DNA of 64,000 nt from Desulfocapsa sp. Lineage in GTDB: Bacteria > Desulfobacterota > Desulfobulbia > Desulfobulbales > Desulfocapsaceae. The stretch lies in contig JAFLJS010000008.1 of the NCBI GenBank assembly GCA_022712895.1, positions 62,001 to 126,000 of the forward strand, read 5' to 3'. The translations under genes and the position numbers were made by a program. Of this stretch, positions 2,124-63,502 are shown piece by piece; within the stretch, counting starts at the first letter, position 1, and each line of letters opens with the position of its first letter. The notes beneath the pieces were generated by a model. That model did not search any database. It had not been told where the DNA came from and was given only the letters and a program-made list of their open reading frames with translations.

Positions 2124-2278
2124 GAAAAATCTTCATCTGCTTCGTTGTTGTTAATTTTCTATCATTGCGATGTACCCTAGTATACTGTAATGATAGAAAA
2201 TTAACGCGCCTCGCATATGAAGTTTTTCGAAGTCTACGCTTATCTACTTTACCATCTAAGTTTTAGGTTTTTACGAGT
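2124..2278. repeat. Palindromic repeat, copy A
   Basis: An imperfect palindrome between the ferredoxin and NrfD-type genes. It has a conserved left end (AAAAATCTTCATCTGCTTCG from 2125), a private inner stem (TTAATTTTCTATCATT pairing with AATGATAGAAAATTAA), a central TGTACCCTAGTATACT, and a right end CGCGCCTCGCATATGAAG followed by TTTTTC. The motif TTTTTACGAGT at 2268-2278 is also found to the right of copy B. Related copies are at 6931-7080 (same orientation) and 63282-63390 (inverted). Confidence 0.8.
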
Positions 2279-6930: not shown

Positions 6931-7080
6931 GATGGATTCGCAAAAACTCTCCATCTTCTTCGTTGCTCCAAAATTGAAACAATTACGCCGTACCTTAGTA
7001 CGCCGAAATCATTTCAATTTTACGCGCCTCGAATATGAAGCTTTTTACAAATCCATCTTCAATTTTGACTTTTTACGAGT
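6931..7080. repeat. Palindromic repeat, copy B
   Basis: An imperfect hairpin of about 150 bp between napD and napA. The outer arms GATGGATTCGCAAAAA (6931) and TTTTTACAAATCCATC (7042-7057) are complementary. Next come the conserved ends CATCTTCTTCGTTGC and CGCGCCTCGAATATGAAG, an inner stem (AAAATTGAAA / TTTCAATTTT), and the central GCCGTACCTTAGTACGCC. It has the same orientation as copy A. TTTTTACGAGT at 7070-7080 marks the right boundary, as in copy A. Confidence 0.82.
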
Positions 7081-54751: not shown

Positions 54752-55012
54752 GTTAATCGGTTTGTACTCAACGTTGTTTTGCAGACTGTATATGCCCGCT
54801 TTTTGAAGAAAATCTCTGAATACCAGTACCCTTCTACTACTCTCAGCCAGACAAGATGCTACCACAAACGTCAGCCATATCAACAACGATCTACAGTATC
54901 AGTCTAAAAGACCTTAAAACCGGCCACTGCAACAGCAATAGATGGCATGACAATGGTAAAAAAAAAGAGTAACTTCTCATCATGATACCTGTAGGATATA
55001 CATAATTCTTCC
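54752..55012. other. Non-coding stretch before the nested palindrome
   Basis: Between the acyltransferase start and the palindrome there are about 260 bp. An open frame continues upstream of the acyltransferase start (to 54886) but has no ribosome site. The remaining bases (A-rich near 54958-54968) show no ORF, RNA or clear promoter. Confidence 0.4.
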
Positions 55013-55203
55013 TGATTACCACCCAAACTCAGGTTCACAATATTGACGACTCTCCATTATAGCTGGTAGCAAGGGTTGCAGTGACTTATCGACAAACAAT
55101 TCCGCAGCGACGCAGTCGCGTGGACGTTTGTCGATGAGTGACTGTAAGCCTGCGGTCTACGGAGCAACCGTCATTGTGATTACCTGAGTTTGGGTGGTAA
55201 TCA
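55013..55203. repeat. 191-bp nested palindrome with perfect 21-bp ends
   Basis: Outer arms 55013-55033 and 55183-55203 are perfect 21-bp inverted repeats (core ACCACCCAAACTCAGG). Inside, imperfect pairing continues (TCACAAT/ATTGTGA). A second stem pairs 55079-55097 with 55126-55144 (CAGTGACTTATCGACAAAC, two mismatches). At the centre GCGAC (55107-55111) pairs with GTCGC (55115-55119) around GCA. It ends 23 bp before the next start codon. It may be a MITE-like element or a structured RNA. No obvious target duplication flanks it. Confidence 0.8.
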
Positions 55204-55226
55204 GATATTTTTTTTAAGAGACATAC

Positions 55227-56117
55227 ATGCCAAATACCCTGGCTCACATCGGACTGCAAACGCCACTCACAAAACTCGGACTTCCCACAGCCCCGTTACA
55301 ATGGATTGTACTGGGCTGCATCATCCCTGATATCCCATGGATTTTGCAACGGATACTCCGCCTGATTCCGGCAGTTGACCCCGTTAACCTGAGGTTATAT
55401 GCTATTTTTCAGGCCAGCCTTTTCTCCTGCTGCATCCTGTCGCTGGCCTTTGCTCTTCTCACACGTAAAACAGGATTTATATTTCTCATCCTTTCGCTTA
55501 ACAGCCTGCTCCACCTTCTGCTCGATGCCTGCCAGATCAAGTGGGGGAATGGCGTAAACTTCCTGCTCCCCTTTTCCTGGCACACCACAAACTTTGCTCT
55601 CTTCTGGCCGGAACATTCATTCACGTATCTTCTTATCGCCATGGGTTGCATCGCACTTGTTGTCTGCTGGCCACAGGCAGTAAAGGGTGAGCTGTTCCTG
55701 CAAAAACCGAATACAAAGAAGACAATCTGCCTGGCTTTTGCCCTGATGTTCTATATAATAAGCCCCTTTTCCTTCATCAAAGCTGCATATAACGCTGATG
55801 TGCATTACAGTAAAACAATTCTCAACAAATGGGAACAAGCAGGCAAAACAGTAGAGATAGACCGGGGAAACTATACGACGCAGACGCAAAGCATTGATTC
55901 GTACGCAGCTAAAGCGCTTCCGCTAAACAATCCCCCTGCAATACAGACGGGAATTGTGTCTATCAGGGGTATATTTGACCAGCACAACCGCATCACGGTC
56001 ATAGAATATCACGAACACAAAAGCCACCGCGATTACGCATCTTATGTTGGTTTATTCCTTGTCATGCTCCTCTGGTTACACTCAATCATACGAATGATTA
56101 AAGAAGCTCGTGAATAG
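55227..56117 (+). CDS. YdjM/LexA-binding-type membrane metal-dependent hydrolase
   Basis: A 296-residue membrane protein. The family signature is MPNTLAHIGLQ at the start (His in AHIG), then VLGCIIPDIPWI (Asp) and NSLLHLLLDACQIKWGNG (His and Asp), the expected metal ligands of the PF04307 family, with five or so membrane segments. C-terminal to it is an extra soluble part (ADVHYSKTILNKWEQAGKTV) and a final helix (YVGLFLVMLLWLHSIIRMI). Its physiological substrate is unknown. Start ATG is 23 bp after the palindrome and no Shine-Dalgarno is obvious. It precedes the ABC transporter genes by 26 bp. Confidence 0.78.
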   Translation: MPNTLAHIGLQTPLTKLGLPTAPLQWIVLGCIIPDIPWILQRILRLIPAVDPVNLRLYAIFQASLFSCCILSLAFALLTRKTGFIFLILSLNSLLHLLLDACQIKWGNGVNFLLPFSWHTTNFALFWPEHSFTYLLIAMGCIALVVCWPQAVKGELFLQKPNTKKTICLAFALMFYIISPFSFIKAAYNADVHYSKTILNKWEQAGKTVEIDRGNYTTQTQSIDSYAAKALPLNNPPAIQTGIVSIRGIFDQHNRITVIEYHEHKSHRDYASYVGLFLVMLLWLHSIIRMIKEARE

Positions 56118-63281: not shown

Positions 63282-63390
63282 CGAAAAAAGCTTCATATGC
63301 GAGGCGCGTAGATTTTATATCATTTCGGCGTACTAAAGTACGTTGTAATTATATAAAATATACAGCAACGAAGCAGATGAAGATTTTTTT
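63282..63390. repeat. Palindromic repeat, copy C (inverted)
   Basis: Between thiD and thiC, in the orientation opposite to copies A and B: GCTTCATATGCGAGGCGCG (63289-63307), inner stem ATTTTATAT/ATATAAAAT, central CGGCGTACTAAAGTACG, and CAACGAAGCAGATGAAGATT near 63365-63384. No gene or TPP riboswitch is seen in the rest of the 361-bp gap. Confidence 0.82.
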
Positions 63391-63502
63391 TTGTTCCAGC
63401 AGCAACTTTCCCTACGACTTTATTACAAAAGCATCAGGTTCAAGGGGTTTGTTCTCAGCCAGTTTCCCAGCACCCCCAAGTCAATTATTTCTTACAACAA
63501 AT

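What the first reader, a model, noticed from the sequence alone, without database searches (positions are those of the whole stretch)
55013..55203. 191-bp three-tier palindrome with perfect 21-bp ends
Perfect 21-bp arms, a second 19-bp stem with two mismatches and an inner hairpin give one long nested fold just 23 bp before a start codon. It shares no sequence with the A/B/C palindromes. It could be a MITE remnant, a recombination site, or a 5' structured RNA that controls the YdjM-like gene.
Basis: seen in the sequence. Interest (0 to 1): 0.66.

Follow-up and report, generated by a model that had tools for sequence, protein, structure and literature searches.

The report
Miniature transposon carrying a capped hairpin
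The long palindrome is one copy of a tiny, gene-less jumping DNA element scattered through Desulfocapsa-like bacteria; nested inside it is a second hairpin whose oddly shaped tip stays nearly the same while the stem below it changes, and that tip is the part worth studying.

Summary
The palindrome is real and slightly longer than reported: 23-bp perfect arms (55012-55034/55182-55204), RNA fold z = -14.5. It is a MITE copy: ends CCTGATTACCAYYNAARCTCAG; 8-bp target duplications in the family (43 of 56 distinct elements match at 7 or 8 of 8 bases at one exact offset; this copy 6 of 8); ends found in 19 of 20 genus genomes; no copy upstream of the neighbouring gene in the 13 relatives inspected. 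A conserved riboregulator or recombination site is not supported. The same ends enclose different inner palindromes, including GTAG-REP pairs. The inner hairpin is unusual: its 34-nt tip (AAT/AC internal loop, non-Watson-Crick pair, bulged A) is kept on differing stems; a model of it matches 13 of 257 genomes of the order, 12 in one family, within at least two outer wraps. Stems covary; G-T mismatches outnumber A-C about five to one, suggesting selection on one single strand. No transposase for the ends and no partner for the tip was found. Verdict: new variant of a known kind.

The parts
55003..55010 (.). left copy of the putative 8-bp target duplication (TAATTCTT)
   Evidence: 6 of 8 identical to the right copy at the offset used by the family
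55011..55034 (+). left terminal inverted repeat, CCTGATTACCACCCAAACTCAGGT
55063..55159 (+). inner core hairpin (model R1, 97 positions)
   Evidence: covariance model hit at the corresponding place of the own genome, alignment and pair counts
55072..55097 (+). 5' arm of the inner stem
55096..55129 (+). 34-nt tip (cap) with AAT/AC internal loop, G-T pair and bulged A
55126..55151 (+). 3' arm of the inner stem
55182..55205 (-). right terminal inverted repeat
55206..55213 (.). right copy of the putative target duplication (TATTTTTT)
55227..56117 (+). downstream 296-aa gene, weakly YdjM-like; neighbour, not part of the element

Best explanation
The 195-bp sequence is one copy of a non-autonomous miniature transposon (MITE) that landed upstream of the YdjM-like gene in this lineage. 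Shown: terminal repeats, 8-bp target duplications in the family, many copies, absence from the same place in relatives, no ORF of 80 aa or more across it. Inferred: it is moved in trans by an unidentified transposase, probably of the DDE type, that acts on CCTGATTACC ends. Inside is a second, nested hairpin whose stem changes sequence but stays paired and whose tip is conserved. Inferred with less certainty: the hairpin is held by selection on one strand in single-stranded form, because an unknown protein recognises the tip as ssDNA or as RNA. Any effect on the neighbouring gene is incidental.
For: Terminal repeats and exact-offset 8-bp duplications, 43 of 56 elements; ends in 19 of 20 genus genomes, reversed-pattern control 0 in all 20; full-length relatives in the own genome; 13 of 13 inspected relatives lack it upstream of the gene and the G001 flank aligns with the window flanks; covariation beyond all 500 shuffles on two alignments; G-T over A-C mismatches 100:19 and 37:7.
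Against: The window copy's own duplication is only 6 of 8. No transposase with these ends was found (the lists were cut). Shuffle controls do not keep relatedness. The G-T excess counts related sequences, and part of the 25-sequence set was found with a model that tolerates G-T pairs. DNA folds of single tips are not all stronger than shuffles (L190: 28 of 200 shuffles as good).
Confidence: 0.87

Rival explanations
1. A 5' structured RNA (riboswitch, attenuator) that controls the downstream gene.
For: Very stable fold 23 bp before the ATG; covarying stem with a G-T over A-C asymmetry; a run of T follows the right arm (by eye).
Against: None of 13 inspected relatives has it upstream of the orthologous gene. 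Copies lie beside many different genes with no orientation bias for the tip strand: of 45 placed copies 11 tandem same, 19 tandem opposite, 8 divergent, 7 convergent. No Rfam match up to E = 1. The promoter scan found nothing above chance on the + strand.
Confidence: 0.05
2. The inner core is a REP/REPIN-type element moved by a Y1 (RAYT) transposase, caught inside a MITE.
For: Small hairpin with conserved unpaired features, dispersed, seemingly present with and without the outer ends; REP pairs occur inside the same ends; Y1 transposases are present in the own genome (5 places).
Against: None of the 21 Y1 loci in 9 of 10 further genomes, nor the 5 in the own genome, shows the tip within the flanks held. 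Y1 loci L132 and L247 are flanked by GTAG REPs instead. No constant GTAG or CGTC tag: WB1_Bin_21 copies read GGCAG where others read GGTAG.
Confidence: 0.15
3. A site-specific recombination site (integron attC-like or phage att site).
For: Imperfect hairpin with unpaired bases. One copy of the outer-end family lies on a putative viral contig.
Against: Dispersed intergenic copies with 8-bp duplications. That viral-contig copy has its own 8 of 8 duplication (read). The attC core-site rule (recalled) is not matched by eye. No test of recombinase linkage was run.
Confidence: 0.02

Closest known systems
Bacterial MITEs (defined in PMC3733652, passage read, as 70-300 bp, 15-30 bp TIRs, no coding capacity)
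   Same: Size, terminal inverted repeats, target duplication, dispersed intergenic copies, no coding capacity.
   Different: The same ends hold several unrelated inner palindromes, one of them with a conserved tip on changing stems.
REP dimers nested in longer palindromes (A. variabilis GTAG-15, H. neapolitanus CGTC-1; PMC3733652, section 7 read)
   Same: A palindrome inside a palindrome.
   Different: Here the outer palindrome has transposon ends with 8-bp duplications and also occurs with other contents; the window's inner hairpin is not a tagged REP.
REPINs / RAYT-associated REPs (PMC3116915, search listing only; PMC3733652, section 16 read)
   Same: Small dispersed imperfect hairpins.
   Different: No constant tag, no linked Y1 transposase seen, about 26-bp stems of changing sequence.

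Membership tests
MITE | terminal inverted repeats of 15-30 bp | tested here: met
   23-24 bp
MITE | target site duplication | tested here: met
   family: 43 of 56 at 7 or 8 of 8; window copy 6 of 8
MITE | 70-300 bp, no coding capacity | tested here: met
   195 bp; no ORF of 80 aa or more overlaps it
MITE | multiple dispersed copies and empty sites | tested here: met
MITE | autonomous relative with matching ends | tested here: inconclusive
   none seen as an inward pair 0.5-4 kb apart with a transposase in own, G009, G018, G013, G016, G019 (list cut); the one long pair, in G009, encloses a 516-aa ORF with no Pfam match
REP / REPIN | GTAG or CGTC tag beside the hairpin | tested here: not met
   not constant across copies
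REP / REPIN | linked Y1 (RAYT) transposase gene | tested here: not met
   0 of 21 loci in 10 genomes and 0 of 5 in the own genome carry the tip in the flanks held
cis-regulatory RNA | conserved position next to the regulated gene | tested here: not met
   0 of 13 relatives
known Rfam family | match to a covariance model | tested here: not met
   no match at gathering threshold or at E up to 1
integron attC site | cleavage by an integrase at the core site | not testable with these tools
   core motif compared by eye from memory only

The most novel reading that the evidence does not exclude
The 34-nt tip is a transferable hairpin cap: a unit recognised in single-stranded form by an unknown factor, which has come to sit on unrelated stems and inside at least two different outer elements in one bacterial family, and which has itself taken up a 17-24 nt insert that also appears, with filled and empty versions, in several unrelated repeats.
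Probability: 0.25. Interest if true: 0.78.

Novelty: new variant of a known kind. Interest (0 to 1): 0.5.

Why it matters
It turns a curious palindrome into a natural experiment: one set of transposon ends with interchangeable palindromic contents, and one hairpin tip kept on stems that evolution has rewritten. That series would let one test directly which part of a repetitive bacterial hairpin is under selection, on which strand, and by what protein.

Tried and rejected
Phage records: no match by distant blastn of 401 bp. Viral contigs: exact tip pattern 0; exact terminal-repeat pattern 3 stretches, one with a paired element holding a REP pair, two the same unrelated-looking sequence with a single end. 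Autonomous partner: G006:C73:5939-8703 looked like a long pair but each end belongs to a small element of its own; G009:C1:1364488-1366297 encloses a 516-aa ORF with no Pfam match up to E = 1 and one end has a degraded partner 110 bp away. REPtron for the tip: not seen. Promoter or terminator in the element: one promoter-like site (shuffles 1.0) and one 5-bp terminator-like site (shuffles 0.2), both on the minus strand. The idea that tips end in very stable DNA triloops: seen by eye in window-type tips, not borne out by the DNA folds of all seven tested, so not claimed. Core-only copy L005 between an xerC-like gene and hslV: the site was printed for 17 relatives and no paired tip was found (L269 has only 120 nt, and in L267 and L272 the xerC end is not in the printed stretch), but decayed outer ends at L005 could not be excluded, so independent mobility of the core is not claimed. 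Papers: 0 for Desulfocapsa with inverted repeat or miniature inverted, 0 for four sequence strings, 0 for a six-term REP-in-MITE query; PMC3739170 passages only, with no occurrence of 'transpos'; read as listings. Absence from print is claimed for these searches only.

Full report
1. The observation. The palindrome is there. Arms 55012-55034/55182-55204 are 23 nt, fully complementary, 147 nt apart; a 26-nt second stem (85%) and an inner hairpin are nested inside. The RNA fold is far below shuffles, z = -14.5, 0 of 200. It is the only 100% complementary pair in the window's list of 17 inverted repeats. Rfam has nothing here at the gathering threshold or at E up to 1.

2. It is a repeat. In the own genome (3.68 Mb, 75 contigs) full-length relatives lie at C24 (76% identity) and C48 (72%); other places match only the inner part or only the ends. 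By blastn 5 of 36 genomes match, the own included, all of one genus; in two of them (G014, G019) only an end matches. An exact tip pattern in the 84,980-species genome collection finds 29 contig stretches, all from three MAGs: two named Desulfocapsa and one named Deltaproteobacteria bacterium WB1_Bin_21 (near relatives of the window's genome may be left out there). The window is therefore from a Desulfocapsa-like bacterium (inference).

3. It is a MITE. The ends read CC-TGATTACCAYYNAARCTCAG. From the loci then held I collected 56 distinct elements (paired ends 30-260 bp apart, up to 3 mismatches); the set is biased to what earlier calls had fetched. At the offset 2 bp outside TGATTACC, 43 of 56 have 7 or 8 of 8 identical flanking bases, mean identity 0.88; offsets in the same register fall off from there (36 and 35, then 13 and 11), offsets out of register give 0-2. 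The window copy has 6 of 8. The ends occur, at up to 2 mismatches, in 19 of 20 genus genomes, from 1 site to 98 per genome, with 0 for the reversed control pattern in all 20.

4. Empty sites. The downstream gene has a match in 15 of 20 genus genomes, the own included. I printed 420 nt upstream of it for the own genome and 13 relatives; the match in G019 is a fragment and was left out. None of the 13 has the element there, and a pattern scan of all 15 loci agrees. G013 and G009 have end sites of this family on the other side of the same gene. The G001 flank aligns well with the window's flanks, the G013 flank poorly.

5. One frame, several contents. Of the 56 elements, 18 hold the window-type core (9 in each orientation), 13 a REP by a loose match of up to 7 mismatches (5 of these a REP pair; some single matches may be spurious), and 25 other interiors, among them a 174-bp type frequent in G009 and two with a GTCATTCCGG palindrome that resembles the CGTC class. 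REP dimers inside longer palindromes were described before (PMC3733652: abstract, passages and sections 6, 7 and 16 read), so nesting as such is known.

6. The core covaries. On 45 distinct core sequences (all that the script found in held loci at up to 7 mismatches to a tip pattern; four were then extended by 17 nt), 89.2% of cells pair against 79.7% in shuffles; 25 of 38 pairs change on both sides; 144 such cells against 30.4; 0 of 500 shuffles reach this; slid structures give at most 30 such cells. Against the drawn structure: four pairs are often unpaired (41, 36, 36 and 19 of 45 sequences), and the shuffles do not keep relatedness.

7. The tip outlives the stem. Model R1 hits 10 of 93 family genomes (per-genome counts include opposite-strand matches of one place, e.g. 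14 matches at 10 places in the own genome). Its weaker hits in G003, G039, G040, G044, G045 and G048 share mainly the tip, ACAAT(N)YCRCAG...GCGAGGACGTYT, on other stems. Among nine representatives the 5' stems are 0.22-0.78 identical over 18 positions, so a few stems may be related. On 25 sequences chosen from both kinds (13 window-type, 12 distant; the pattern had given 53 hits, one of them, L164, spurious), 16 of 18 outer pairs change on both sides, 121 cells against 38.5, 0 of 500. In these 25 the bulged A is present in 25, the AAT side in 24, the AC side in 24, and the pair above the loop is G-T 13, A-A 7, G-A 5, never Watson-Crick. An exception outside the set: L227 of G009 has A-T there (read). 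Model R2 hits 13 of 257 genomes of the order, 12 in the same family (G002 only by diverged copies) and one borderline, G113, E = 0.007; at most 20 candidates per genome were scored, so copy numbers are lower bounds. Outer wraps: the window's ends in G003 and G040 (by eye); a different shared outer sequence in eight aligned copies of G044, G045 and G048, one of them cut by a contig end.

8. Strand. In the stems, G-T/T-G mismatches outnumber A-C/C-A 100 to 19 in the 45-sequence set and 37 to 7 in the 25-sequence set; columns that show each type are 23 against 13 of 28, and 13 against 6 of 18. A function of double-stranded DNA should treat both strands alike, so I infer selection on the tip strand when single, as RNA or ssDNA. 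Sequences are related, and distant members were found with a model that tolerates G-T, so the ratio is indicative. Of 47 placed copies 46 are not inside a called ORF of 200 or more codons, the other being the spurious L164; of the 45 with ORFs on both sides 30 are tandem (11 on the tip strand, 19 opposite), 8 divergent, 7 convergent (crude ORF calls). This shows no preference for the gene strand.

9. What was not found. No transposase with these ends (some lists were cut). No Y1 transposase beside the tip: 0 of 21 loci from 10 genomes (9 with a Y1 gene) and 0 of 5 in the own genome, within the flanks held.

10. Verdict. The thing is of an ordinary kind, a MITE, with an unusual interior. I am confident about the MITE, moderately so about single-strand selection on the hairpin, and unsure about the cap as a separate unit.

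Noticed in passing
window 2227-2244 (- strand); L067, L069, L015, L085, L185, L193: A 17-nt sequence GRTAAGCGNAGACTYCG sits in several unrelated repeats with counterparts that lack exactly it: tip L067 against L058 (junction 0 mismatches of 24), L185 against L075 (0), window against L006 (1), L015 against L125 (1), L085 against L086 (3); 24-nt forms in L193 and L182. Rare: 2 hits in 400 kb of own genome plus the window (reversed control 1) and 1 in 400 kb of G009 (control 0) at up to 2 mismatches. Not in the window's own element.
   Followed up: partly
L314 121-268: A 148-bp element with the same ends and a REP pair inside lies on a putative viral contig, with an 8 of 8 flanking duplication read by eye.
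   Followed up: partly
L263, L267, L272 upstream of hslV: Other long nested palindromes occupy the region upstream of hslV in three relatives.
   Followed up: no
window 2150-2205, 6970-7021, 63308-63363; L280 2386-2536; L291 16311-16463: A further palindrome family around TATCATTNCGNCGTAC, in some copies nested inside other inverted repeats.
   Followed up: no
window 54938-54956: A stretch GATGGCATGACAATGG is kept in relatives, where in several it looks like the start of a divergent minus-strand gene that is missing in the window (by eye).
   Followed up: no
L132 (own genome C24): A short Y1-transposase-like ORF flanked on both sides by GTAGGAGCTCGCC-type REPs.
   Followed up: no
L140 (G009): Two end sites 1.8 kb apart, facing inward, enclose a 516-aa ORF with no Pfam match up to E = 1.
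   Followed up: partly
window 63392-63487 (- strand): TPP riboswitch, 56.8 bits.
   Followed up: no
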